DNA of 27,193 bases from Anaerolineae bacterium (GTDB lineage: Bacteria > Chloroflexota > Anaerolineae > JAFGEY01), in contig JAFGJF010000207.1 in the NCBI GenBank assembly GCA_016929205.1, positions 1-27,193 on the forward strand, written 5' to 3'. The notes below the pieces were generated by a model. The model searched no databases and was not told where the DNA came from. It was given only the letters and a program-made list of their open reading frames with translations. A program made the translations under genes and the position numbers. Numbering within the stretch: the first letter of the stretch is position 1; the number at the start of each line of letters is the position of its first letter. Positions 8,786 through 27,193 of the stretch are shown in pieces.

Positions 8786-10636
8786 ATGGCCTATAGCCAA
8801 CTGGGTCCAGACCTGTTTGTCCATCATGGTGAGGTTAACGTCGGCATATTGCGCGACGGCAGCCGTGCCTGCCTGATCGACTGTGGTGACGGTGACGTAC
8901 AGCACACGCTCCAAGAACTGGGTATGACATACGTCGAGGCTGTTTTGTTTACCCACCACCATCGTGATCAGGCTTCCGGTATTTATGGGTTGGTTGAAAC
9001 AGGAACCCGCGTGGTTGTACCTGCAAAAGAACAAGCGTGGTTCGCCAATGTAGAAAAGGTTTGGAATGACCCTGCCTGGCGCTGGCATCTTTACGATTTC
9101 CACCCCCACAATCTGATGCTGGCACAATCGGTTCCTGTTCACCAGGTATGTCAAAAAGGCGATACGTTTTCCTGGGGCAGGATGAACGTTTCTGTTTTTG
9201 AGACACCGGGACATACCGAAGGCAGTGTATCCTATCTGGTCAACGACAAACAGGATACGACGGGATATTTGTTCTGCGGCGATACGATCTATGCCCTTGG
9301 GCAGATTTACGATCTGTACAGCCTGCAAAAAGGCTGGGAGACACGAGACTATCACGGGTTCCTGGGCAACCGCAAACGGTTAATTTCTAGCTTGCGCGAG
9401 ATTCAAGTCGTTGAGCCAATAGCTCTCGTTCCCTCACATGGAAACACAATCACCCACCCGGGGCGTGCCGTCGATTTGCTCATCAGTCGGCTGGAACAAT
9501 GCTACGAGCAATACGCTGCTATCAGCGCGCTGCGTTTTTACTTTCCCGAGATGTTTGCCGACTATGAGGGGCGTCCAGGCACGATGCCTGTAGGTACAAG
9601 CAAACCGACTCCGGGCTTTGTGACCCACATCGGTACGACGTGGATCATCTCTTCACAGAACGGCGCAGCCTTTGTGCTCGACTGCGGCACCGAAAGGGTG
9701 ATCCATCACCTCCGGCACATACAAGCCAGGGGCCAATTGGGCACTGTGGAAGGGCTGTGGATCACCCATTATCACGACGACCACGTCGACGCCATTCCAC
9801 AATTTCAGGAGACGTTCAACTGCCCGGTCATCGCCGACGAACACGTCGCTCAGGTCGTTGAGAACCCGCTAGCCTGGCGGCTGCCTTGCATCTCGCCTGC
9901 TCGAATCCAGGTTGACCATCATACAGTCCACGGTGAATCGTGGGCGTGGCGCGAGTTCATTTTTACCGCTTATCATTTGCCGGGACAGACATACTACCAT
10001 GGCGGGCTGCTCGTCGAGGGGCGCGGAGCGCGCATCTTTTTCGTCGGCGACTCGTTTACACCTTCCGGCATTGATGACTATTGCGCCGGCAACCGCAATA
10101 TTCTTGGCGAAAGTCAAGGCTTTGACGCTTGCCTGAGACTCGTTCAGCAAATTGCGCCAGAGATGCTGCTCAATTCGCACGTTGACACTGGTTTTAGCTT
10201 TACGCCTCAAGATTGTGCCTTGATGCGCGCCAACCTCGCCAAACGCGAACAAAGCTATGGTGACCTGTTTCCGTGGGATAACGTCAACTATGGGATCGAT
10301 GAACATTGGGTACGCTGCCACCCTTACGAGCAGCATATCTCACCCGGCGCTCGCGTACAAATCGATACAATCATAACCAACTATACAGATCACCTCTGTG
10401 CTGCACGATGCCGCCCTATTTTGCCACCGCAGTGGCAGATTGGCGTAGCCGCAGGGGAAGCAACGATTGCACCGCAAAGTCAAGAACGAATAACTTTAAT
10501 GTTCAGCGTGCCACACGATGCCGCTCCCGGGCGGTGGGTTGTCCCAATCGATGTGACATATGATGGACGACGGCTGGGGCAATTTCGCGAAGCGATTGTC
10601 GTCATCAAGAACGATAGGGAACGAGTCACACAATAG
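8786..10636 (+). CDS. Tandem metallo-beta-lactamase-fold hydrolase with C-terminal beta-sandwich
   Basis: A 616-residue protein with two MBL domains in one chain. Domain 1 (about 1-260) has 'FTHHHRDQ' (H57, H59, D61, then Q62 where HxHxDH expects His), 'GHTEGS', 'CGDTIY' and 'PSHGNTI'. Domain 2 (about 275-500) has an intact 'THYHDDH', then 'GDSFTP' and 'NSHVDTG'. The last ~100 residues look like an Ig/CARDB-type beta sandwich ('AAPGRWVVPIDVTYDGRRLG'), often seen in secreted or carbohydrate-related proteins, although no signal peptide is visible. The ATG is weakly supported by GCGGGA upstream and lies 30 bp after the TIM-barrel gene. The substrate is unknown; MBL proteins hydrolyse esters, thioesters, phosphodiesters or lactams. 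Confidence 0.87.
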   Translation: MAYSQLGPDLFVHHGEVNVGILRDGSRACLIDCGDGDVQHTLQELGMTYVEAVLFTHHHRDQASGIYGLVETGTRVVVPAKEQAWFANVEKVWNDPAWRWHLYDFHPHNLMLAQSVPVHQVCQKGDTFSWGRMNVSVFETPGHTEGSVSYLVNDKQDTTGYLFCGDTIYALGQIYDLYSLQKGWETRDYHGFLGNRKRLISSLREIQVVEPIALVPSHGNTITHPGRAVDLLISRLEQCYEQYAAISALRFYFPEMFADYEGRPGTMPVGTSKPTPGFVTHIGTTWIISSQNGAAFVLDCGTERVIHHLRHIQARGQLGTVEGLWITHYHDDHVDAIPQFQETFNCPVIADEHVAQVVENPLAWRLPCISPARIQVDHHTVHGESWAWREFIFTAYHLPGQTYYHGGLLVEGRGARIFFVGDSFTPSGIDDYCAGNRNILGESQGFDACLRLVQQIAPEMLLNSHVDTGFSFTPQDCALMRANLAKREQSYGDLFPWDNVNYGIDEHWVRCHPYEQHISPGARVQIDTIITNYTDHLCAARCRPILPPQWQIGVAAGEATIAPQSQERITLMFSVPHDAAPGRWVVPIDVTYDGRRLGQFREAIVVIKNDRERVTQ

Positions 10637-10651
10637 ACACCGATCTAGATG

Positions 10652-10680
10652 TTGACAATAACACCTAGATACGATATGAT
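10652..10680 (+). promoter_or_regulatory. Promoter of the kinase-TIR-ATPase operon
   Basis: TTGACA (10652-10657), a 17-bp spacer and TATGAT (10675-10680). The spacer contains ACCTAGATA (10663-10671), a 9-mer also present in the padR operator at 1379-1387, which may be chance. Confidence 0.82.
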
Positions 10681-10699
10681 AGATTCATAAAAACGAGAG

Positions 10700-10718
10700 T
10701 CCTCTTGGATGAGAGGAG
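10700..10718 (+). promoter_or_regulatory. Hairpin covering the ribosome binding site of the kinase gene
   Basis: TCCTCT (10700-10705) pairs with AGAGGA (10712-10717) across a 6-nt loop. The right arm is the Shine-Dalgarno (GAGAGGAG, 10711-10718), six bases before the GTG start at 10725. This could limit translation or be relieved by a factor; the pairing is visible, the role inferred. Confidence 0.5.
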
Positions 10719-10724
10719 CAACAA

Positions 10725-13160
10725 GTGAGCGAAAAGGAAACACATCCTGCAAACCCCGGTCAGCCAGACGAGGGTAATAACGAACAGCAGCCATCCTTAA
10801 AGACACTGGGCAAATACAAGATCATTTCCCAGCTAGGTATGGGCGGTATGGCCCGCGTCTTCAAAGCCTACCAACCCGGCCTGGACCGTCACGTGGCGAT
10901 CAAAGTCATTCACAGCCACCTGTCCAGCACCGGCAACTTTATCGAGCGATTTGAACGCGAGGCGGCAACCATCGCCCGCTTGCGTCACCCCGGCATCGTC
11001 CAGGTCTATGACTTTGACTCCCAAGGCGGCCTGTACTATATGGTTATGGAACTCATCGAAGGCCCTTCGCTGAAAACCAGGCTGGAAGAACACTACGCTC
11101 GACAACAGACCTTTTCCTTGTCTGAAACGCTGCACATTCTTACCACCTTGGGTGGTGCCATCGACGCTGCCCACGCCCAGGGTATTGTCCATCGCGATCT
11201 AAAACCGGCCAACATCATGTTCACAGCTGAAGGCCAGGCAGTATTGACCGACTTTGGCATCGCCCGCATCTTTGGCAAAACCTCGTTTACGTCGACAGGC
11301 ACGATCGCAGGAACACCGAAATACATGTCGCCGGAACAGGTGCAAGGCGAGCGAGGTGACGAACGCAGCGACATTTATTCCTTGGGTGTGACCCTGTACG
11401 AGATGCTCACAGGATGTGTGCCGTTTGATGCCGATAACACGTTTGGGATCATGATGAAACACGTCACCGAACAAGTGCCCCCGCCAACGCTGTGCAACCC
11501 GGACATCCCCCAGGCGGTCGAGCAGGTCATCCTCAAGGCATTGTCCAAGTCCCCTGATGATCGATACCAAACCGCCGGTGATTTGGTCAACGCATTCGAA
11601 AACGCGATCAAAAAGCCAGCCGCGACGACCAAAGCACGCGTGTTTATCAGCTACAAACGCCACGTCACACCGGACGAACCGTTGGCCGTGCGCCTTCGTC
11701 AGGCATTGGAACAAGCCGGGCACATTGTGTTTATCGATCAAAAGCTAGAAATCGGCGTCAACTGGGCCCAAGAACTGGAACGCCAGATCAAAGACTGTGA
11801 CTTTATGATTGTGCTCTTGTCGGAAGCGTCGGTAGACAGCGAAATGATCGCCAAGGAGGTCGAATGTGCTCACCGCTACCACAAACAAACGGGCCGCTCT
11901 CGCTTGTTGCCTGTGCGCATCAGCTATGAGGGCACACTCCCTTACCAAATCAGCCATTATCTCGATCCGCTGCACTATGTCGAATGGCATCATGACGCGG
12001 ACAACGAAACGCTGGCCGAGCAGATCCTGGATGCGGTCAGCAAACTCACACCGCTGCCCAAAACTGGGTCGAAACCGGCTTCGGACGACGAGTCTGAAGC
12101 TGGTATCACCACCGCGCCGCAGCCCTATGCCGATCCACGCTTTGTTGAATCTTTGCGCGATCCAAGCGGGGCAGTCGGCCGTCGTTCCCAGTTCTACATC
12201 GCCCGCGAAGAAGACGACCAGCTTTTGCGTGAACTGGCCAAACCATATGGCACCACAACGACGATCCGCGCTCCTCGCCAAAGCGGCAAGAGTTCACTGC
12301 TGATCCGAGGAATTGCTCAGGCCAAGGCCCAAGGCAACCAGGTCGTTTTTCTCGACCTGCAGCCCATTGCCAGTAGCTATTTACAGAGTCTGGATGACTT
12401 TTTGTACTACTTTGCCACGTCGATCGTCACCAAGCTAAAGCTGGATCCCGGTGAGGTCGAAAAAGCGTGGCGCAGCTCACTCGGCGCGCCGGACAAAACG
12501 ACTTATCTGATGGAAGGATACGTTTTGCCAGAAGCAGATCACAAGATCGTCCTCGCTATCGACGAGGCCGATCTGCTGCTGCGTACACCTTTCCACGACA
12601 ACTTTTTCGGTCTGATCCGCTTCTGGCACAACAGCCGAGCAATGGACGATATCTGGGAAAATCTGGACATCGTTATGGTTATCTCTACGGAGCCGCACTT
12701 GCTGATCGGCGATGTCACCCAATCTCCGTTCAACGTCGGGCTCAAGCTGCGCCTGCAAGACTTTGACCAGAACCAAGTACGCGAATTAAATGCTCGCTAC
12801 CGCCAGCCGCTAAACGAGCAGCGCCTGTCAGCCTTGTACGGTTTTCTGGGCGGGCACCCTTATCTAACTCACAAGGCAATCTATATCATGGTGACCGAAA
12901 ACGTCTCGTGGCAAGATCTGCCCGGCATTGCCGCTTCCGAGTCAAGTCCGTTCGGCGACCACCTTCGTCGCTATCTATGGCTGCTGCGCGATCAGCCCAA
13001 ATTGAGAAACGCGCTGAAAACGATCATTGCCACGAACCAATGCCCCGATGAGGTATCATATTATCGTCTCCTTCAAGCCGGCCTGATCAAGGGCCACGGC
13101 CGCAGCGCCTGCACCTGCCGCTGCGAACTGTACGAGCTCTATTTGAAGGATAAACTATGA
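10725..13160 (+). CDS. Ser/Thr protein kinase - TIR - AAA_35-like ATPase fusion
   Basis: An 811-residue soluble protein starting at GTG with a GAGGAG site. Residues ~30-295 form a complete Hanks kinase: glycine loop 'GMGGMARV' (38-45), K60, E79, 'HRDLKPAN' (156-163), 'DFG' (176-178), activation loop rich in Ser/Thr and 'SPE' (202-204). Residues ~304-440 are a TIR domain, opening with 'VFISYKR' and keeping Glu378 where NAD-cleaving TIRs have their catalytic Glu. Residues ~470-811 are an AAA-like ATPase with Walker A 'APRQSGKSS' (516-524) and Walker B 'IVLAIDEAD' (608-616). No membrane helix or PASTA repeats. The C-terminus has a C796-x-C-x-C800 cluster. It leads an operon with two ATPase paralogs. 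Probably a signal-transducing or defence protein; the trigger is unknown. Confidence 0.93.
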   Translation: MSEKETHPANPGQPDEGNNEQQPSLKTLGKYKIISQLGMGGMARVFKAYQPGLDRHVAIKVIHSHLSSTGNFIERFEREAATIARLRHPGIVQVYDFDSQGGLYYMVMELIEGPSLKTRLEEHYARQQTFSLSETLHILTTLGGAIDAAHAQGIVHRDLKPANIMFTAEGQAVLTDFGIARIFGKTSFTSTGTIAGTPKYMSPEQVQGERGDERSDIYSLGVTLYEMLTGCVPFDADNTFGIMMKHVTEQVPPPTLCNPDIPQAVEQVILKALSKSPDDRYQTAGDLVNAFENAIKKPAATTKARVFISYKRHVTPDEPLAVRLRQALEQAGHIVFIDQKLEIGVNWAQELERQIKDCDFMIVLLSEASVDSEMIAKEVECAHRYHKQTGRSRLLPVRISYEGTLPYQISHYLDPLHYVEWHHDADNETLAEQILDAVSKLTPLPKTGSKPASDDESEAGITTAPQPYADPRFVESLRDPSGAVGRRSQFYIAREEDDQLLRELAKPYGTTTTIRAPRQSGKSSLLIRGIAQAKAQGNQVVFLDLQPIASSYLQSLDDFLYYFATSIVTKLKLDPGEVEKAWRSSLGAPDKTTYLMEGYVLPEADHKIVLAIDEADLLLRTPFHDNFFGLIRFWHNSRAMDDIWENLDIVMVISTEPHLLIGDVTQSPFNVGLKLRLQDFDQNQVRELNARYRQPLNEQRLSALYGFLGGHPYLTHKAIYIMVTENVSWQDLPGIAASESSPFGDHLRRYLWLLRDQPKLRNALKTIIATNQCPDEVSYYRLLQAGLIKGHGRSACTCRCELYELYLKDKL

Positions 13161-14728
13161 CCCTCATCCAGCGCAGAGAAGCCGAATTTTTTAGGGCAGG
13201 CGGAACGCTGCATCCTGATTCCCCATCGTACATCCGTCGTACCGCCGATATCAACTTGATGCAACAGATCGCGGCCATACAGTTCTGCTATGTGCTCACA
13301 CCGCGGCAAATGGGGAAATCCAGCCTGATGATCCGTACCGCTGGCGAGCTCCGATCACAAGGCATCAAGGTAGCGATTATCGATTTGAGTGTCCTCGGTA
13401 CTCAGGCAACGGTCGAACAGTGGTATCTGGGCATCCTAAAACGGTTGGCCCAGGATCTCCGGCTGTCTGTCGATCCGGAAAGTTGGTGGCATGCCCGCAG
13501 AACGCTCGGGCCGGTGCAGCGCTTTACCGATTTTATCCACGATATCATCTTGGGCGAGATCGAAGAACAGATCGTCGTATTTGTTGACGAAATTGACTCG
13601 ACGCTCAAACTCGATTTCACTGACGATTTTTTTGCTGCTATCCGGGTCATGTACAATCTGCGTGCCAGCGAACCCGAATACGAACGTTTAACGTTTGTGC
13701 TTTTGGGTGTAGCCTCGCCCGGAGACTTGATCAAGGATCGCAATCGCACGCCATTCAACATTGGCCAGGCTATCGACTTGAAAGAATTCAGCCGCCAGGA
13801 CGCCCAGGCACTCGAGAACGGCCTCAACGAGATCTATCCCGGACAAGGACAACGCATCCTGGATCGCATTTTTTATTGGACAAATGGACACCCCTACCTG
13901 ACCCAGAAGCTGTGCTACGAAATCGCAACCGCTACTGATGCGGATGCAACCACTCATTGGACGCAAACGCGCATCGATGCAACCGTTTACGACCTGTTCT
14001 TCAGCCCGGATGCCCAGGCCGAAGATAATTTGCAGTTTGTGCGCAGTCACATCCAAACGGACCCGCAACGCCGTGACCTGCTGCACCTTTACCGTCGCGT
14101 ATACAAAGGTCAACCTGTCCAAGAAGATAAACGATCCTTGGTACAAAATCGTCTCAGCCTGATTGGCCTGGTGTACGCCCAAGATGGCAGACTCCAAGTG
14201 CGCAATGAAATCTATCGCCACGTCTTTGACCTCGCCTGGATCCGGGAAAACACCCCTATCAATTGGTCGCAGATCACAATCTTGGGCAGCCTGATCGTCT
14301 CCCTGATTGCGCTACTCGTTGCCTTTGTTGTCATCCCGGGCCAAGAACGCATCAAGCAAGCGACACAAATCAACACGTATGTCGAAGGATTCCGCACCTC
14401 GAGCAGCGCCAACGCCCAGATCTTTCACCTCTCCAAGCTGTGCGGCATCGAACAATGCGAAACAGCGCGCCAGATCTTTTTCGAGCGCCCCTCTAAAGAA
14501 CAACTCGCGATGTTTGAGCAAGTCGATGCGGGAGCAGGCGACCGGCTGGCGGTTGTCGCCGGCTGCTTGTACCCCTCTGTTGCAGAAAACACCGGTACAG
14601 ACGATCAAGCACAGGCGCTCTCTCAGGCCATTTGCTGTGCGATGCACAAGTTGGGTGGCGATCATTGGGCCCGGTTTCAGGCCAACACGTCCCAGACCTG
14701 CGAATGCACGACGAAAGGTAACCCATGA
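13157..14728 (+). CDS. AAA_35-like ATPase with transmembrane anchor
   Basis: 523 residues; its ATG overlaps the stop of the kinase-TIR gene by 4 nt, so translation is probably coupled. The N-terminal module opens with 'FFRAGGTLHPDSPSYIRR', then Walker A 'TPRQMGKSS' (48-56) and Walker B 'VFVDEIDSTL' (141-150). A conserved 'FYWTNGHPYLTQKLC' sensor-like region and a winged-helix-like end ('LQVRNEIYRHVF') follow. A single membrane helix lies at ~373-395. The remaining ~125 residues would be outside the cytoplasm and match the post-membrane domain of the next protein ('ARQIFFERPSKEQLAMF'). This makes it a membrane partner of the upstream kinase-TIR-ATPase. Function not established. Confidence 0.88.
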   Translation: MTLIQRREAEFFRAGGTLHPDSPSYIRRTADINLMQQIAAIQFCYVLTPRQMGKSSLMIRTAGELRSQGIKVAIIDLSVLGTQATVEQWYLGILKRLAQDLRLSVDPESWWHARRTLGPVQRFTDFIHDIILGEIEEQIVVFVDEIDSTLKLDFTDDFFAAIRVMYNLRASEPEYERLTFVLLGVASPGDLIKDRNRTPFNIGQAIDLKEFSRQDAQALENGLNEIYPGQGQRILDRIFYWTNGHPYLTQKLCYEIATATDADATTHWTQTRIDATVYDLFFSPDAQAEDNLQFVRSHIQTDPQRRDLLHLYRRVYKGQPVQEDKRSLVQNRLSLIGLVYAQDGRLQVRNEIYRHVFDLAWIRENTPINWSQITILGSLIVSLIALLVAFVVIPGQERIKQATQINTYVEGFRTSSSANAQIFHLSKLCGIEQCETARQIFFERPSKEQLAMFEQVDAGAGDRLAVVAGCLYPSVAENTGTDDQAQALSQAICCAMHKLGGDHWARFQANTSQTCECTTKGNP

Positions 14729-14761
14729 TTCGCCATTCGCTATTTCTTGGAGAGTCGTACG

Positions 14762-17701
14762 ATGAATAACGCATCCGATTATTTTGTCGCTGGGGGCACG
14801 CTTCGCCTGCACACCCCCTCTTACGTCACCCGTCCTGCCGACCAGGAGTTGTTCGAACGCGTTCTGAATGGCGCATTCTGCTACGTCCTCACCCCCCGCC
14901 AGATGGGGAAATCGAGCCTGATGGTGCGTACAGCGCAGCGGCTCAGGGAAGAAGGGGTGGCAACCGTTATCATCGATTTGACCAGCATCGGCACCGTTTC
15001 CGCCGAAGCATGGTACCTGGGCCTGCTGACGCGTATCTCGAACGGCCTGCGCCTGCGCCAGGACGTGCAAGCGTGGTGGGAGAGTCAATCACTCAGCGCA
15101 CCACAGCGCTTTATGGAATTCCTACGCCAGGTCGTCCTCGAACACGTCGAGGGGCCGGTAGCCATTTTCATCGACGAAATCGATTCAACGCTCAAACTCG
15201 ATTTCCGAGACGACTTTTTTGCCGTCGTCCGCGCCGTCTATAACGCCCGGGCCAACGATCTGACCTACAACCACCTGACATTTGTCACCCTCGGTGTAGC
15301 CACCCCAACCGACCTGATCCGAGATCGCAATCGCACGCCGTTCAACGTTGGCACTCGCATCGTGCTTCAAGAATTCAGCCGGCAGGATGCTGTCCCGCTG
15401 CAAGAGGGCATTAACAAGACCTATCCTGGCCAGGGCGAGCAAATCCTGGAACGCATTTTTTATTGGACCAGCGGCCATCCCTATCTGACCCAAAAGTTGT
15501 GCCTCACCGCGGTCACCGACGATCGCACACCCTGGACAGACGAACGGGTCGACGAACTGGTTCACCAGGCATTTTTGAGCGAAGAGGGCCGCAAAGACAC
15601 CAACCTGGTTTTTGTCCAGGACCGCATCCAGAACAGCACGGAAATGGAACGGCACCATATGCTCAGGCTTTACGACCGGATCCGCCGCGACAAGCCTGTT
15701 ACTGACGACGACCGTTCACCGATCCAAAACTATCTCGAACTTTTCGGCCTGATCAAGGTCGAACAAGGCCAACTGCAGGTGCGCAACGAAATCTATCGCC
15801 ACGTCTTTAATCGCAGCTGGATCAAGGACAACCGGCCTCCCAGGCGGCAAAGCAGGTGGGCCGTTGCCTCGATCGTCACTGCCGTGCTGCTCGTAGCCGC
15901 CATCGCTATCGCCATTCTCACTCGCCAGAAGCCGCCCGAGATCCGCGCCCAGACTTACATGGAGCTGTTCGACATCGCCACAACCGATGCAGAACGTTTT
16001 GAGGCCCTGTCCGATCTGTTTAGCCTGGGCGGCTATGACCGGGAAGCATTGGAGCGATTCTACGCCCTGCCCCCCAGCGAACAAGAATTTCTCTTTTTCC
16101 TGCAAGATACACCGGTCAAGGCAGAGGAAGTGGAACTTGTCGTCCGCAAAATCTATGTTACCCTGGATGCGACGAGCGATGGTCACGACCAGGCGATTAT
16201 GGAAGCGATGGTCAGTGCCCTGGAAAACGCCGGCGCAGATCAGGCCCTGATCGACGAGATCGAGAACTGGCGATCGGGGCGCGAACAAAGCCTGGAAGGT
16301 GAGTTTGAACAGGCTATCGCATCATACACTGCCGCCATCGATCAAAACCCCGATCATCCCGTCACCCGCTACGACAGGGCAGAGGCATACATCGCCCACC
16401 AAGACTATGGCAAAGCGCTGATCGATCTCGATCACGTGGTGCGCATCGCAGACTCACCAACACCCCAGCCCCAGGCGCGCGGCATCGTCTTGGCGCAGAG
16501 TGCCACGAACAGATTTATCGACGCCAAAGCGATCGAACAGACGGTTCGCGAGGCCATCCTCGGCAGCGAGATATTGCAGGATATATTGTACACCAGCCTG
16601 GACACGTACCAGCACCTACCTTCCGTGATCGAGCCAACGGACCTGGGATTCTATTACGAGGTTCTGATCAAGGACGCAGCCACAGATATGGCGCTTGAGA
16701 ATGCAAGTTTTACGCTTGCGGCCGGACGAAACTGGGTTTACGAAGCCACGACGAACACCCAGGGTATGGTCAAGGCGTTCATTGCAGCACAATATGCAGG
16801 GCAACAAGCCAAGCTAACTATCACAAACCGAGACTACCTGGAGCACTCGGCAGAGGTGCAACTGGACAAGCACTCAGGGGCGGTTGTCGTCTCTATCGAG
16901 AAACATACGCCAACACCCACACTGACCAACACGCCAACGTCGACCAACACGCCAACGTCGACCAACACGCCAACGTCGACCAACACGCCAACGCCGACCA
17001 ACACGCCAACGCCGACCAGTACACCGACACTCACACCGACGCCGACCGGTGTGCCAACCAAATCACCAACACCGGTACCAACGCCTACGCGCCAGATTGA
17101 AATCATCTACATTTGGCCCAGCGCCCAATGCAACTCGGATGGAAGCTGGACGGCCTATTTCAAAGTCAAGGTTGTCGGTGGAAACCCACAGAATTACGTA
17201 TTCTATTGGGACCTGGAACCGGTCAGCTATACCCCCGAACCCGGCGAGTCCGACGTATATGTCATCCAGCGTTCCGGCATTCCCGTACTCATGGTGGGAA
17301 CCATCTGGGTTGAATCGGGAGGACAACGCATAGGCAAAGCGACAAGCCTCGAGCCGCCACCGAGTTGTCCCAAGATGATTCCCACACCTACATTGCAGCC
17401 CGGCAGTGGGCTGAGACTATCTACCGGTACGTTAAAAATCGATCGTATCTGGTCATCCGCGACATGCCTAGGTGATGGCAGGTGGGTCGTTCGTTTTCAC
17501 ATTTACATCTTGGGTGGAAATGGGCAGAACTATAACCTCTATTGGAATGACAACCCGGTCTATTATATTGGGCAAGACAACGTGGCAACGGTTCAATTTG
17601 GTTGGCTCTACGGTGATATCCACGGAACCGTTCGAGTCGTATCAGGAGAGCAACAGGCTGAAGCCAAGGCCTCTGGCGAAAAATCCAAGCTGTGTCACTA
17701 G
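14762..17701 (+). CDS. AAA_35-like membrane ATPase with large extracytoplasmic region, PT-rich stalk and twin beta repeats
   Basis: 979 residues from ATG 14762 (GGAGAG seven bases upstream); an in-frame TTG at 14747 is less likely. Domains: AAA-like ATPase with Walker A 'TPRQMGKSS' (44-52) and Walker B 'IFIDEIDSTL' (135-144); membrane helix ~366-387; a domain shared with the preceding protein (~396-490); a TPR-like helical pair (~508-560, 'AIASYTAAIDQNPDHP'); an Ig-like segment (~625-713); a Thr/Pro stalk (716-777). Two related beta repeats end it (~779-870 and ~892-978), each starting 'IW.SA.C' and ending with Cys. The paired cysteines and PT stalk suggest a surface-exposed sensor. Its ATPase half is a close paralog of the preceding gene, pointing to tandem duplication. 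Confidence 0.88.
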   Translation: MNNASDYFVAGGTLRLHTPSYVTRPADQELFERVLNGAFCYVLTPRQMGKSSLMVRTAQRLREEGVATVIIDLTSIGTVSAEAWYLGLLTRISNGLRLRQDVQAWWESQSLSAPQRFMEFLRQVVLEHVEGPVAIFIDEIDSTLKLDFRDDFFAVVRAVYNARANDLTYNHLTFVTLGVATPTDLIRDRNRTPFNVGTRIVLQEFSRQDAVPLQEGINKTYPGQGEQILERIFYWTSGHPYLTQKLCLTAVTDDRTPWTDERVDELVHQAFLSEEGRKDTNLVFVQDRIQNSTEMERHHMLRLYDRIRRDKPVTDDDRSPIQNYLELFGLIKVEQGQLQVRNEIYRHVFNRSWIKDNRPPRRQSRWAVASIVTAVLLVAAIAIAILTRQKPPEIRAQTYMELFDIATTDAERFEALSDLFSLGGYDREALERFYALPPSEQEFLFFLQDTPVKAEEVELVVRKIYVTLDATSDGHDQAIMEAMVSALENAGADQALIDEIENWRSGREQSLEGEFEQAIASYTAAIDQNPDHPVTRYDRAEAYIAHQDYGKALIDLDHVVRIADSPTPQPQARGIVLAQSATNRFIDAKAIEQTVREAILGSEILQDILYTSLDTYQHLPSVIEPTDLGFYYEVLIKDAATDMALENASFTLAAGRNWVYEATTNTQGMVKAFIAAQYAGQQAKLTITNRDYLEHSAEVQLDKHSGAVVVSIEKHTPTPTLTNTPTSTNTPTSTNTPTSTNTPTPTNTPTPTSTPTLTPTPTGVPTKSPTPVPTPTRQIEIIYIWPSAQCNSDGSWTAYFKVKVVGGNPQNYVFYWDLEPVSYTPEPGESDVYVIQRSGIPVLMVGTIWVESGGQRIGKATSLEPPPSCPKMIPTPTLQPGSGLRLSTGTLKIDRIWSSATCLGDGRWVVRFHIYILGGNGQNYNLYWNDNPVYYIGQDNVATVQFGWLYGDIHGTVRVVSGEQQAEAKASGEKSKLCH
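16925..17014 (+). repeat. 18-bp tandem repeat encoding the PT-rich stalk
   Basis: Five consecutive copies of ACCAACACGCCAACGTCG (the last two have CCG at the end) start at 16925, 16943, 16961, 16979 and 16997, with degenerate units on both sides. Each adds one TNTPTS-type hexapeptide in frame. The near identity suggests recent slippage, so stalk length may vary between strains. Confidence 0.95.
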
Positions 17702-23741: not shown

Positions 23742-24520
23742 TCACCTATGCGTGGCTCAACCGTTTCCACAGCCGGCATCCGCTCGTGCACGAGCTCAAA
23801 AAACGGGCGTACCGCGATCTGCTCGCTGAACGGCGGGAAAAAATCGTCGTGGTGGTGCGGGATCACGCACTTGGGATGCAGCAGTTCGACCATCCGCAAA
23901 GCCACGCGATGGATATCCGAACGTCCCTGCAGCGGCAGCAGCGCCACGTCAGGATCGAGACCCACCAATTCCTGCTGGATCCAGCCGGCACTGCCCAAGT
24001 GTACCACACTTGTCTCCAAAACGGCAAATCGGTACCCCAGCACCTCCCCCACCGGCCAGCCGCGCGCCTGGCGCAGCGCAGCCAAAACGTTTTTCCTTTG
24101 GTGCAGCACGCGTCCCAACGCCCGCCAGACCAGTGGCAGGTCAAAACGAACGTGCCGCGAGGGAAAAGCCAGCACACCAACCCCGCCGACGTCGAAACGC
24201 CTCCCACCGGAAAGGGGATGCAGTTGCCTGGCCGGCACGCCGGCATCGTGCAAAACCTGGCACACCACGGCAGACGCGTAGACCGGTGCACGGGTGTGCA
24301 AAGCGACTGTCGGCACGTCGCACGCGTGATCAAAATGGCCATGGGTGACAAAAATCGCATCGGCAGCCAGATCGTGGATGGTCAGGTTGAGGTTGGGAAA
24401 TGCATCTTGGCTACGCGAAAGAAAAGGGTCGATCAGAATCGTGACAGTACCAAGCCGCAACTGGAATCCAGCCGTACCCAGCCAACGGAAAGCAAGCGGC
24501 AGATCGTGCTGTATTACCAT
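23723..24520 (-). CDS. Metallo-beta-lactamase-fold hydrolase, UlaG-like
   Basis: About 265 residues from ATG 24520; a longer open frame exists but overlaps the previous gene heavily. Motifs: 'FRWLGTAGFQLRLGTVTILIDPF' is typical of the UlaG/YycJ-like MBL branch with 'GTAG' and 'DPF', followed by 'THGHFDH' (full HxHxDH), 'FPSRHVRF', 'GSAGWI' and 'IPHHHDDFF'. Members are Mn/Zn-dependent hydrolases of lactones or phosphodiesters. The start overlaps the stop of the upstream LTD/PLD gene by 7 nt, and the stop overlaps the downstream HAD start, so it lies in a coupled operon. The ribosome site is weak, which also suggests coupling. Confidence 0.88.
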   Translation of the reverse strand: MVIQHDLPLAFRWLGTAGFQLRLGTVTILIDPFLSRSQDAFPNLNLTIHDLAADAIFVTHGHFDHACDVPTVALHTRAPVYASAVVCQVLHDAGVPARQLHPLSGGRRFDVGGVGVLAFPSRHVRFDLPLVWRALGRVLHQRKNVLAALRQARGWPVGEVLGYRFAVLETSVVHLGSAGWIQQELVGLDPDVALLPLQGRSDIHRVALRMVELLHPKCVIPHHHDDFFPPFSEQIAVRPFFELVHERMPAVETVEPRIGEWMSLC

Positions 24521-27193
24521 ACCACAACGCTGCCTGGTGCCGGTTCGTAAAGAATTCGAAAATCGTGCTGGCAATCGTTCGCGTCACGGTTGGCCGGCCG
24601 CCGCTCCAGCGAATTGCCACTGTAAACGCCGCTCACGTCGCCAAAGGAATCGACGCCGGCATACCCCCCACTGCCATAAACCACCACATCCACGGCCTGC
24701 CGTGATCCATCGAGCAGCAAAATCTCATCGCCCGCGTTGCCCAAGACAAACTCACCTTCGCCCCGCGCGCTGCGGTGCATATTGGGCACACTCCCGCTGC
24801 TGTCGTTCCACTCAAAGTCCGGCACAGGCTTGTTCACATAGCCCAACGTCTGGTACGCCGTCGCCTGGCGAGCTACGACCAGCACGCCGTAGGCCGGGAT
24901 CGTCGTTCCTGTTGGAAACACGTACAACCGTTCATAATCGGTTCGACGAACGGCATCGCCCAGGTACCAGCCACCCACATCTACAACGCTACCGGTTGGG
25001 TTGTACAGTTCAACCCACTCAGCCATATCATCGGCACCCGGTGGGTTGAACATCACTTCACTGATCAGAACGTGATCTGATTCGGTGACATAGTCTTGGA
25101 AAATGAACGGAAAATACGCCTCATACGGGCCGCCGCTGTGCGCCCAATCATAGTCAAAGACAAGCTTGAGCGTGTCGTATGCGCCCTCCGAGTGCACCTG
25201 CAGTGCCACCTCTCGGTTCCCCTTGGATGATACCTCTGATCCGTTGATGCTGCCCACGTGAACGACCCTATTGCCGCCTTGGTTAACCAGCACCATCTTG
25301 TTGTGAATGCCCCGTCGCGTCGGGTTACCCAGGCGCACATCCAGGTCCAACCCCTCACGATGAGCCACTTTTAAAATGTAAAAGGCCGTTTCATAGTTCT
25401 TGCGCTGGTCGTCAAACCCTTTATCCAGCAAAATGCGAACCGTCGCCCCGTTTCGCGCCGCCTGGATGTAGGCTTCCAAACGCGGATTGGGATCGACAGA
25501 CCATCCATCAGCAGACACACCCCAATCAACGCGCTCGTACATTTGCTCTACATACACCTCGTCACCCATCCCAGCTCGCAGCACGAGCCCGATCAAGCCA
25601 TCATTGTAACGCAGTCCAGTCTCTGGCGAATGAATCACCTCCAGACGTTCAGCCTGCAAAGCCGGCATCGTTGCCGAAAATGGAGCCATATAGTTGTAAC
25701 CGCCTCCGCCGGTTGAATAGACGGCTGTATAAGTGACGGGCACAGTATATTTGTCCAGCGCCCCGTAGGAAACGATGTCGTGATGGTGAATGGGATCGCA
25801 GTCGCGGGAAAACAACGTTTCTAGATAACGCGCTGTGTCAGCTTGATCGACGATCAGCACAATACCCCGGTTGCCTGCTGTACCATTTGCTTTATCGTCC
25901 ACAGGCAGCGCGTGATTGCCAAAATTCTCCGATCCGACCGCCACCCACCGGCCATCCACAACCACAAACTTGGCGTGCTGGCTCGTATAGCGATCAAAAA
26001 TATGGACAGTGCTGTCATTGTGCATAAAATAGACATGCCCACCGGCGTCGACGATCTTTTCACAGTTCCACAACTGCTGATCGGACATACCACCAGCCGG
26101 AGCGCCTTCTAACAGCATCGTCACCTGCACGCCGGCAGTTATGCGCTCGGTGAGAATGCCGGTCAGCCATACGCTCTCAAATGTGTAGGCCTGAACGACA
26201 ATGTGTGCCTGGGCACGCCTCAAAAGATGAGCCACCGGGGTGTACGCGTTATCCGGTGCGATGGCCACCGTTAGATCTACCGTTGCCGTGATTGCGAATG
26301 GTTCGTCATAGAGATCCCAATCCCAGCCAGGGTACATGACCCGCTTGCCATACAAATCACCCTCATGCACAAGTCCATAAAGCACCGGACCGGGCGTCAC
26401 ATCGTTGGCCCAATCAACGGCACTATCGGTATCGGTCACCGGAAGCCCGGTCAATTCATCCCGTTTTCGAAACAAGATCTGACCTTTGCCAAATCCGGCA
26501 AGAGGGTAGGATACGGCCTTGCCGTTCCACTCTGCCGTTTCTGTCACGCCGTCACCATAGACCAGCGTATCCGCGGCGCGCCCCTCATTGTCGTACAAGA
26601 TCGCTTCGTCGCCCGAGTTGGAAAACCCAGGCCAACTGCCGGACAACAAAGGGATGGCGTGCCCGGCATCACTGAGCGCCACATCGGGCGAAAAACCAAA
26701 AGAGACAGAAAACGCACCGGCATCGTCGGCAACCCACAGCACCCGACCCGGCGCGATTGCCACATCCGGCAGCGTTACACCGGGTGTCGATGGGCCATCG
26801 CTGACCCCCCATCCCGTCAACCACACAGGCACCGCTCCCAAATTGATCAACGCCACGGCCTCGTCACTGGTACGTAACGCATATGGATGCAAGGCATAGA
26901 TACACACCTTGGGCACAGAAATACTCGCGTTTTGCGCCCCAGGCGTGCCGTTGATCGGATCGCCATTCGCGTCAAGGCCGTTTCGAATCACGCCATCATT
27001 TGTCGCCCAATTATCGACGCGATCAGATCCTGTTGGGTCAATACGCTCCATCGTATAATCCGGACTGCTTTTCCCTGCGGCCCAACCGTTACCATAGCCC
27101 AAATCACGATTCGCCGTATCGATGATATGACCTACATTATCCAAAAGCACCAGCTCTTCGCCTGTATTCAAGATCCGCTGCCCACCGTACACC
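24514..27193 (-). CDS. Large LTD / phospholipase D-fold protein, likely exported (5' end missing)
   Basis: At least 892 residues; the frame runs off the right edge, so the N-terminus and any signal peptide are missing. Order as seen: lamin-tail-domain (LTD) part with 'GEELVLLDNVGHIIDTANRDLGY', a second LTD (~95-270, 'NSGDEAILYDNEGRAADTLVYGDG'), a PLD-like region (~305-700) and a C-terminal LTD (~708-830, 'ISEVMFNPPGADDMAEWVELYN'). The PLD region has two HxK motifs: H406-A-K408 followed by 'VVVDGRWVAVGSENFG', and H630-N-K632 followed by 'VHVGSINGSE'. LTDs mark many extracellular or surface bacterial proteins, often joined to nucleases. It probably cleaves phosphodiesters outside the cell (DNA or lipid). 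It leads into MBL and HAD hydrolase genes. Confidence 0.9.
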   Translation of the reverse strand, partial: VYGGQRILNTGEELVLLDNVGHIIDTANRDLGYGNGWAAGKSSPDYTMERIDPTGSDRVDNWATNDGVIRNGLDANGDPINGTPGAQNASISVPKVCIYALHPYALRTSDEAVALINLGAVPVWLTGWGVSDGPSTPGVTLPDVAIAPGRVLWVADDAGAFSVSFGFSPDVALSDAGHAIPLLSGSWPGFSNSGDEAILYDNEGRAADTLVYGDGVTETAEWNGKAVSYPLAGFGKGQILFRKRDELTGLPVTDTDSAVDWANDVTPGPVLYGLVHEGDLYGKRVMYPGWDWDLYDEPFAITATVDLTVAIAPDNAYTPVAHLLRRAQAHIVVQAYTFESVWLTGILTERITAGVQVTMLLEGAPAGGMSDQQLWNCEKIVDAGGHVYFMHNDSTVHIFDRYTSQHAKFVVVDGRWVAVGSENFGNHALPVDDKANGTAGNRGIVLIVDQADTARYLETLFSRDCDPIHHHDIVSYGALDKYTVPVTYTAVYSTGGGGYNYMAPFSATMPALQAERLEVIHSPETGLRYNDGLIGLVLRAGMGDEVYVEQMYERVDWGVSADGWSVDPNPRLEAYIQAARNGATVRILLDKGFDDQRKNYETAFYILKVAHREGLDLDVRLGNPTRRGIHNKMVLVNQGGNRVVHVGSINGSEVSSKGNREVALQVHSEGAYDTLKLVFDYDWAHSGGPYEAYFPFIFQDYVTESDHVLISEVMFNPPGADDMAEWVELYNPTGSVVDVGGWYLGDAVRRTDYERLYVFPTGTTIPAYGVLVVARQATAYQTLGYVNKPVPDFEWNDSSGSVPNMHRSARGEGEFVLGNAGDEILLLDGSRQAVDVVVYGSGGYAGVDSFGDVSGVYSGNSLERRPANRDANDCQHDFRILYEPAPGSVVVW

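What the first reader, a model, noticed from the sequence alone, without database searches (positions are those of the whole stretch)
10652..17701. Candidate undescribed signalling/defence system: kinase-TIR-ATPase fusion with two membrane ATPase partners
One operon joins a complete Hanks kinase, a TIR domain with the Glu378 position kept, and an AAA_35-like ATPase in one chain. Two AAA_35 paralogs follow: the first overlaps by 4 nt, the second starts 33 bp after the first stops. Both have a single membrane helix and outside domains, the larger with a stalk and beta repeats. Seen: domain motifs, order, overlaps and the dedicated promoter. Known: TIR domains in bacteria can degrade NAD or make signal nucleotides, and AAA/STAND-type ATPases act as switches. 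Inferred: an outside cue is passed by the membrane ATPases to the kinase-TIR protein, by co-assembly of the related ATPase modules and phosphorylation, with TIR activity as output.
Basis: partly seen in the sequence, partly recalled or inferred. Interest (0 to 1): 0.85.

Follow-up and report, generated by a model that had tools for sequence, protein, structure and literature searches.

The report
Split NLR-like receptor at cell membrane
Three neighbouring bacterial genes look like a two-part alarm, with membrane-anchored sensor proteins and an inner protein carrying a kinase and a TIR domain, and related gene pairs recur in several distantly related bacterial groups, recalling the paired immune receptors of plants, although no function has yet been tested.

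Summary
Gene 1 (811 aa) is kinase-TIR-AAA_35; genes 2 (523 aa) and 3 (979 aa) are AAA_35-membrane helix-outer domain. The 4-nt overlap, 33-bp gap, TIR Glu378 and an 11/12 sigma-70-like promoter are present.

Best reading: a split STAND receptor whose membrane sensors switch the executor by ATPase co-assembly, with TIR (here plus kinase) as output. Assembly, direction and NAD use are inferred. No defence-island signal was seen. The nearest published precedent found is the nSTAND2 two-gene system, where one partner is eroded; here neither is.

The parts
10652..10680 (+). promoter-like site TTGACA-17-TATGAT, ending 44 nt before the GTG start
   Evidence: consensus scan, 11 of 12; not evidence of function
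10725..13160 (+). gene 1, executor: Hanks kinase - TIR - AAA_35, 811 aa, GTG start
   Evidence: ORF, Pfam, AlphaFold2 pLDDT 79.6, pTM 0.45
10815..11570 (+). Ser/Thr kinase domain (residues 31-282), catalytic motifs intact
   Evidence: Pfam; motifs; best Foldseek matches PknA/PknB
11640..12023 (+). TIR domain (residues 306-433); Glu378 codon at 11856-11858
   Evidence: Pfam; Glu kept in 56 of 58 executor TIR domains
12162..13148 (+). executor-type AAA_35 STAND ATPase (cAAA), residues 480-808; protein ends 3 aa later
   Evidence: Pfam; tail 0-12 aa in 86 of 86 executors
13157..14728 (+). gene 2, short membrane sensor/partner: AAA_35 - TM - outer helical domain, 523 aa
   Evidence: ORF and Pfam; AlphaFold2 pLDDT 87.1
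13202..14227 (+). sensor-type AAA_35 (mAAA) of gene 2, residues 16-357
   Evidence: Pfam; STAND fold in the model
14279..14335 (+). membrane helix of gene 2 (residues 375-393, inside a model helix 370-414)
   Evidence: hydropathy, model
14408..14689 (+). outer helical domain of gene 2 (residues 418-511), with two Cys invariant in 33 aligned relatives (C429, C470)
   Evidence: model; alignment A1
14762..17701 (+). gene 3, long membrane sensor: AAA_35 - TM - helical/TPR - Thr/Pro stalk - two beta-type repeats, 979 aa
   Evidence: ORF and Pfam
14795..15811 (+). mAAA of gene 3, residues 12-350
   Evidence: Pfam
15863..15919 (+). membrane helix of gene 3 (residues 368-386)
   Evidence: hydropathy
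16295..16420 (+). TPR-like repeat (residues 512-553)
   Evidence: Pfam TPR_19
16906..17095 (+). Thr/Pro-rich stalk
   Evidence: sequence
   Evidence: self-alignment
17432..17698 (+). repeat 2 of the outer domain
   Evidence: self-alignment

Best explanation
The locus is a three-gene form of a split STAND (NLR-like) receptor. Gene 1 is the executor: kinase and TIR effectors fused to a STAND ATPase, with nothing after it. Genes 2 and 3 are membrane-anchored sensors: a related STAND ATPase inside, one membrane helix, and an outer domain. Proposed steps: (1) gene 3's stalked outer domain meets a cue outside, with gene 2 as short co-receptor; (2) the signal crosses the helix and frees the inner sensor ATPase to exchange ADP for ATP; (3) the active sensor ATPases nucleate or join an assembly of gene 1 ATPases; (4) clustering brings TIR domains together to cleave NAD or make a nucleotide signal, and brings kinases together for activation. 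Shown: architecture, gene order, separate clades, co-diversification, conserved ATP-site and TIR catalytic residues, STAND fold of the gene 2 ATPase model. Inferred: steps 1-4, topology, direction and purpose.
Against: No interaction, ATPase, NADase or phenotype data; no hetero-complex was predicted. 18 of 110 sensor genes have no AAA_35 gene upstream; of these 3 lie within 600 nt of a contig end, L139 and L140 are in loci with only about 1.5 kb upstream, L024 has its executor downstream, and several with ample room have none. In the multi-cassette set only 37 of 59 executor-type genes have a sensor within 450 nt. Within-genome co-diversification is uneven: G001 (3 cassettes) r -1.0, G546 (4) r 0.07. 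20 of 86 sensors lack a clear membrane stretch by the cut used, and two carry a kinase instead of an outer domain (L043, L054). Archaeal ATPases and ORC/Cdc6 score as high as NLRs in the fold comparison, so the fold does not single out NLRs.
Confidence: 0.55

Rival explanations
1. An ordinary environmental signalling relay rather than an immune or death switch: outer domains sense wall or matrix state and the executor changes gene expression or phosphorylation; the TIR makes a small messenger.
For: Some executors carry HTH domains instead of TIR (3 of 17 non-TIR N-termini scanned); the kinase residues are kept; neighbours show no defence-island signal; executor-type AAA_35 matches occur in 85 of 145 genomes of one cyanobacterial class at E<=1e-60, though not all of these need be in cassettes.
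Against: TIR dominates (59 of 86); other N-termini include CHAT, EAD11 and TCAD9, domains of conflict systems; in Anaerolineae the sensor family is patchy, 17 of 298 genomes at E<=1e-60.
Confidence: 0.3
2. The membrane ATPase is a lock, not a trigger: it holds the executor inactive, and the executor fires when the sensor is lost or disturbed, as in a guard or antitoxin arrangement.
For: Overlapping genes and partner co-diversification fit a lock equally well.
Against: The executor is the first gene in 86 of 110 cases, whereas antitoxins often come first (recalled); executors without a nearby sensor exist (22 of 59); the sensor's Walker residues are conserved throughout (85 of 85), which a passive lock would not need.
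Confidence: 0.2
3. TIR and kinase are scaffolds without catalysis and the neighbouring ATPases work separately; the order reflects shared regulation only.
For: TIR domains can act as adaptors (recalled); no activity data exist.
Against: Catalytic Glu in 56 of 58 TIRs and kinase residues in 9-10 of 10; complementary architecture and two clades.
Confidence: 0.1

Closest known systems
nSTAND2 two-gene system (Kaur et al. 2021, PMC8195603; section 15 read, other passages by term)
   Same: two adjacent genes, each with a STAND ATPase core; one carries variable effectors; predicted hetero-multimer
   Different: there one partner's ATP site is eroded and effectors are most commonly GT4 or HEPN; here the Walker residues are kept on both sides, effectors are mostly TIR, and the partner is usually membrane-anchored with a variable outer domain
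Paired NLRs of plants and animals (CHS3-CSA1, PMC11298796; NAIP/NLRC4 mentioned in PMC9975940; search listing with abstract starts only)
   Same: STAND receptors that work as pairs; TIR executor in plants and a sensor carrying the variable domain (recalled); fold match to TIR-NLR RPP1
   Different: plant partners keep both N- and C-terminal regions and are intracellular (recalled in part); here N-effector and C-sensor are split between two chains and the sensor is usually membrane-anchored
Avs / bacterial NACHT anti-phage STAND proteins
   Same: STAND core (Avs3, Avs4 and Avs5 among the Foldseek matches), effector N-terminal, sensor C-terminal (PMC10907252, passages)
   Different: tripartite single chain (PMC10907252, passages); here split and usually membrane-bound
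MoxR-vWA (VMAP) ternary conflict systems and DGR-diversified STAND sensors (PMC7159879, PMC10907252; passages)
   Same: multi-part systems of multicellular bacteria with TIR, caspase-like, kinase and EAD domains; some sensors here end in FGE-type domains (8 of 73)
   Different: no MoxR, vWA or VMAP protein among the 18 window proteins scanned with Pfam

Membership tests
STAND / NLR-like ATPases | intact Walker A and B | tested here: met
   Lys 80 of 80 and 85 of 85; Walker B Glu 78 of 80 and 85 of 85
STAND / NLR-like ATPases | NBD-helical-winged-helix fold over the whole module | tested here: met
NLR / Avs tripartite receptor | effector, STAND and sensor in one chain | tested here: not met
   effector-ATPase and ATPase-sensor lie on separate chains; executor tail 0-12 aa in 86 of 86
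nSTAND2 two-gene system | two adjacent STAND genes | tested here: met
nSTAND2 two-gene system | one partner's NTP-binding motifs eroded | tested here: not met
   Walker residues kept in both
nSTAND2 two-gene system | sequence match of the ATPase to the nSTAND2 family | tested here: inconclusive
   Pfam scan of the window proteins at E<=0.01 lists AAA_35 and no nSTAND family; whether Pfam holds nSTAND2 was not checked
nSTAND2 two-gene system | conserved arginine finger | not tested
   -
TIR NADase effectors | catalytic glutamate | tested here: met
   Glu378; kept in 56 of 58 executor TIRs; that this Glu is the catalytic one rests on alignment by eye with SARM1, recalled
TIR NADase effectors | NAD cleavage | not testable with these tools
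   needs enzyme assay
MADS6, Thoeris ThcB4 (NCBIfam equivalogs) | curated score cut-off | tested here: not met
   182.4 against 460; 39.7 against 220
PD-T4-6 kinase (PADLOC) | match beyond the generic kinase domain | tested here: inconclusive
   best E 4.1e-96, but over residues 28-297, the kinase domain; no cut-off given
VMAP ternary system | MoxR ATPase and vWA protein | tested here: not met
   neither domain among the 18 window proteins scanned
anti-phage defence system | location in defence islands | tested here: inconclusive
   each of the 25 PADLOC families shown matches 1 of 108 neighbour proteins; no matched control

The most novel reading that the evidence does not exclude
Bacteria of several phyla possess membrane-anchored paired NLR-like receptors, split so that an effector half and a sensor half, each with its own STAND ATPase, lie on two coupled genes, and use them to read the outside of the cell and fire TIR, kinase, caspase-like or transcriptional outputs inside. 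The window is an elaborated form with two sensors per executor and a kinase-TIR double output.
Probability: 0.45. Interest if true: 0.82.

Novelty: new variant of a known kind. Interest (0 to 1): 0.64.

Why it matters
The characterised bacterial relatives of NLR immune receptors that I know of are single-chain proteins. A common, membrane-bound sensor/executor pair would show that the division of labour seen in paired plant NLRs also arose in bacteria, with the input facing outward. Because sensor and executor are clean modules on separate genes, pairing and mispairing them in a laboratory host would directly test how one STAND ATPase switches another. The sensor ATPase family has no solved relative by sequence, the executor type only RecA Walker A matches, and the AAA_35 name is almost absent from the searched literature.

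Tried and rejected
Whole-genome search for the window: none is held. Plasmid records: 978 match gene 1 somewhere, 0 over 80% of it; the best covers 79% at 38% identity. Defence-island reading: PADLOC on 108 of the 136 neighbour proteins chosen from 40 loci shows no recurrent defence family; among 10 window neighbours one PLD protein matches DrmC over its PLD region (4.3e-13). The neighbour set uses crude longest-ORF gene calls and has no control, so it is weak evidence either way. PD-T4-6, MADS6 and other kinase hits were set aside because they cover the kinase domain only. A strict pattern search for reverse transcriptases (DGR) in the fetched loci found none, although PADLOC lists one RT-like neighbour among the 108; DGR linkage is unresolved. 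Foldseek with gene 1's model shows only kinases in the 50 rows listed, so its TIR and ATPase parts were not compared by fold. TIR sequence against solved structures: no match at 0.01.

Rows dropped before counts: one search drops sensor genes that share an identical 80-aa core with an earlier one; tree and Mantel use 79 of 86 pairs, those with both ATPase domains over 280 aa; one search counts rows with domains long enough (TIR over 90 aa, ATPase over 280 aa); one search scanned 95 of 106 sensor C-termini (residue limit); one search scanned 17 of 18 non-TIR executor N-termini (L001, cut at the contig end, left out by me); non-TIR executors with under 90 aa before AAA_35 were not scanned; the shuffle uses genomes with at least 3 pairs and leaves out 22 executor-type genes without a sensor within 450 nt. 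One search read only one strand of the loci and was replaced. The genome searches scored only 5, 7 or 15 candidates per genome at most, so genome counts are lower bounds, and the loci are the best-scoring ones, not a random draw.

Literature: ten searches were answered. 'PF14516' occurs in 0 papers; 'AAA_35' in 5, four unrelated by title, the fifth (cyanobacterial sigma factors) not opened. 'AAA-like domain-containing protein' occurs in one genome paper, seen in passages as a table entry. Most subscription journals and all preprints are outside that library, so 'not in print' is limited to it. Whether AAA_35 is the Npun2340/2341 STAND family of Leipe et al. 2004 (named in PMC8195603) was not settled.
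Full report
WHAT IS THERE. Gene 1 (10725-13160) is a Hanks kinase, a TIR domain and an AAA_35 ATPase in one chain; genes 2 (13157-14728) and 3 (14762-17701) are AAA_35, one membrane helix, and outer domains. The 4-nt overlap and 33-bp gap are exact, and a TTGACA-17-TATGAT site ends 44 nt before the GTG start. Gene 3 ends in a Thr/Pro stalk and two homologous repeats. GC content is even across cassette and flanks (55.2% against 53.3% and 55.8%), so composition does not mark it as a recent arrival.

RELATIVES OF THE WHOLE CHAIN. In the protein database 11 of the 13 best foreign hits to gene 1 carry kinase, TIR and AAA_35 together; P0006 and P0010 have TIR-AAA_35 without kinase. Four of the full-length ones share an extra N-terminal stretch (P0007, P0008, P0009, P0011) that looked to me like a death-like adaptor domain; no call tested that. 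Genes 2 and 3 have 2679 and 4257 relatives at E<=0.001 among capped candidate lists, gene 3's with changing outer domains such as TPR, propellers, amidase, M23 peptidase, CAP, VWA, SH3 and FGE (domain names recalled from Pfam accessions). By eye, 16 short/long pairs in those two lists share one contig length, which suggests but does not prove that they are neighbours; in one case (26,263 bases) a TIR-AAA_35 protein shares it too.

A CONSERVED CASSETTE, TESTED IN BOTH DIRECTIONS. A scan of one genome per species with the gene 2 alignment alone, which knows nothing of gene 1, gave 80 loci (the best 80 of 482 confirmed). Record titles name Chloroflexota, Cyanobacteria, Acidobacteriota, Verrucomicrobia, Myxococcaceae, Nitrospira, KSB1, Aminicenantes and Methylococcaceae among others; many are metagenome bins and some may be misbinned. 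In 70 of the 80 an executor-type AAA_35 gene lies directly upstream of the sensor on the same strand. Over 110 sensor genes (85 from these loci, 18, 5, 2 from the window) 86 have it, 6 follow another sensor, and 18 have no AAA_35 gene upstream. Of the 18, three lie within 600 nt of a contig end, two are in loci with about 1.5 kb upstream only, and L024 has its TIR-AAA_35 gene downstream; several with ample room have none. The commonest spacings are overlaps of 4 nt (22 of 86) and 8 nt (16 of 86). Conversely, from the executor ATPase, a sensor follows in 24 of 27 Anaerolineae and 24 of 30 cyanobacterial loci that have room downstream (24 and 21 within 300 nt). These are the best-scoring executors; in a set of multi-cassette genomes that reaches lower scores, 37 of 59 executor-type genes have a sensor within 450 nt.

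EXECUTORS AND SENSORS ARE COMPLEMENTARY HALVES. In 86 of 86 pairs the executor ends 0-12 residues after its AAA_35 domain, so it has no C-terminal sensor. The sensors begin with AAA_35: 65 of 86 have at most 17 residues before it and the rest up to 82, which may be overcalling by the longest-ORF rule. A hydrophobic stretch follows within 75 residues in 66 of 86, then a variable region: WD40/propeller in 42 of 95 scanned; in a second scan of 73, 15 matched WD40, 11 TPR and 8 FGE-type. In L043 and L054 the sensor's C-terminal part is a kinase. Executor N-termini: TIR in 59 of 86, of which 10 also carry a kinase; in L018, L036 and L056 a TIR lies in a preceding, apparently broken ORF. Of 17 other N-termini scanned, 3 match CHAT (one of them, L038, with EAD11), 3 HTH, 2 TCAD9 and 2 APH; the others match nothing at 0.001.

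TWO CLADES THAT CHANGE TOGETHER. The 79 executor and 79 sensor ATPases with full domains split into two clades with none misplaced (support 1.0) and about 25% identity between them; partner distances correlate at r 0.92 (0 of 2000 permutations). That correlation includes species history, so it was repeated inside genomes: over 5 genomes with 3-5 cassettes r is 0.85, and shuffling partners within each genome reaches it 29 times in 5000; taken alone, G001 (r -1.0, 3 cassettes) and G546 (r 0.07, 4) do not show it. This favours specific partnership without proving contact.

CATALYTIC SITES. Walker A Lys is kept in 80 of 80 executors and 85 of 85 sensors, Walker B Glu in 78 of 80 and 85 of 85, the TIR Glu in 56 of 58; kinase Lys, Glu, HRD Asp and APE Glu in 10 of 10, DFG Asp in 9 of 10.

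VARIANTS OF STOICHIOMETRY. The window has one executor and two sensors. So does L118 (kinase-TIR executor frame of 1318 aa, then 1173- and 730-aa frames) and, with TIR executors, L057 and L062; L007 and L011 show two sensors with the upstream side cut or empty. In L002 and L003 two sensor ATPases are fused in one chain ahead of a single membrane helix, and G420 has the same arrangement of two matches in one frame; I take this as the best hint that two sensor ATPases per executor is a working unit in this branch. L117 has two executors and one sensor; in L241 a sensor-type ATPase, a stretch that reads like a class III nucleotide cyclase (by eye, not tested) and an executor-type ATPase form one chain.

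HOW IT MOST LIKELY WORKS. See Best explanation. Shown: anatomy, order, partnership, conserved active-site residues. Inferred: that sensor ATPases switch executor ATPases by direct assembly, that the cue is outside, and that the TIR cleaves NAD. The kinase is an optional extra output: 11 of the 30 Anaerolineae loci have it, as do L051, L072 and L074, titled Acidobacteria, Acidobacteriota and Pyrinomonadaceae; three cyanobacterial loci have kinase without TIR.

DEFENCE OR SIGNALLING? Among 108 neighbour proteins each PADLOC family shown hits one member, with no control. The window's neighbours include an M20 peptidase, a protein with two metallo-beta-lactamase folds, a xylose-isomerase-like protein, an SDR and an aminotransferase. 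HTH executors point to regulation in some branches. EAD, caspase-like and TIR domains are typical of conflict systems of multicellular bacteria (PMC7159879 and PMC8195603, passages). I leave the purpose open.

WHAT IS KNOWN. Kaur et al. 2021 (PMC8195603, section 15 read) describe a two-gene system in which both proteins are nSTAND2 STAND modules, predicted to form a hetero-multimer, with one partner eroded and GT4 or HEPN effectors most common. That is the conceptual precedent; the present cassette differs in conserved sites on both sides, TIR-dominated effectors, and mostly membrane-anchored sensors. DGR-diversified STAND sensors (PMC10907252, passages) share the theme of variable C-terminal sensors. 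Paired NLRs of plants and animals (PMC11298796, PMC9975940; listing and abstract starts) are the functional analogy. I found no paper on AAA_35 pairs in the library searched.

VERDICT. Interest 0.64.

Noticed in passing
window 14725-14769: A 14-codon ORF starts in the ATGA that ends gene 2 and stops just inside the start of gene 3, so it could couple translation of genes 2 and 3 (read from the sequence).
   Followed up: no
window 10700-10717: Short hairpin just before the GTG start of gene 1, ending beside the GAGGAG stretch (listed on the minus strand as terminator-like).
   Followed up: no
window 8786-10636: Protein with two metallo-beta-lactamase folds in tandem immediately upstream of the cassette; an Anti-Pycsar Apyc1 match far below its cut-off.
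   Followed up: no
window 24514-27192 (-): Protein with PLD-type and lamin-tail domains; DrmC match over the PLD region (4.3e-13).
   Followed up: no
L127, L130, L133, L135: 811-817-aa membrane AAA_35 proteins without an executor upstream, each directly after a gene for what reads like a secreted, adhesin-like repeat protein (by eye).
   Followed up: partly
L241:3200-5929: Single chain with sensor-type AAA_35, a nucleotide-cyclase-like stretch (by eye) and executor-type AAA_35.
   Followed up: partly
L006, L010, L013: Executor-type AAA_35 with an N-terminal stretch that reads like an HTH in place of TIR (sequences; 3 of 17 members match HTH families), suggesting membrane-to-transcription versions.
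   Followed up: no
L043, L054: Sensor genes whose C-terminal part is a protein kinase rather than an outer domain.
   Followed up: no
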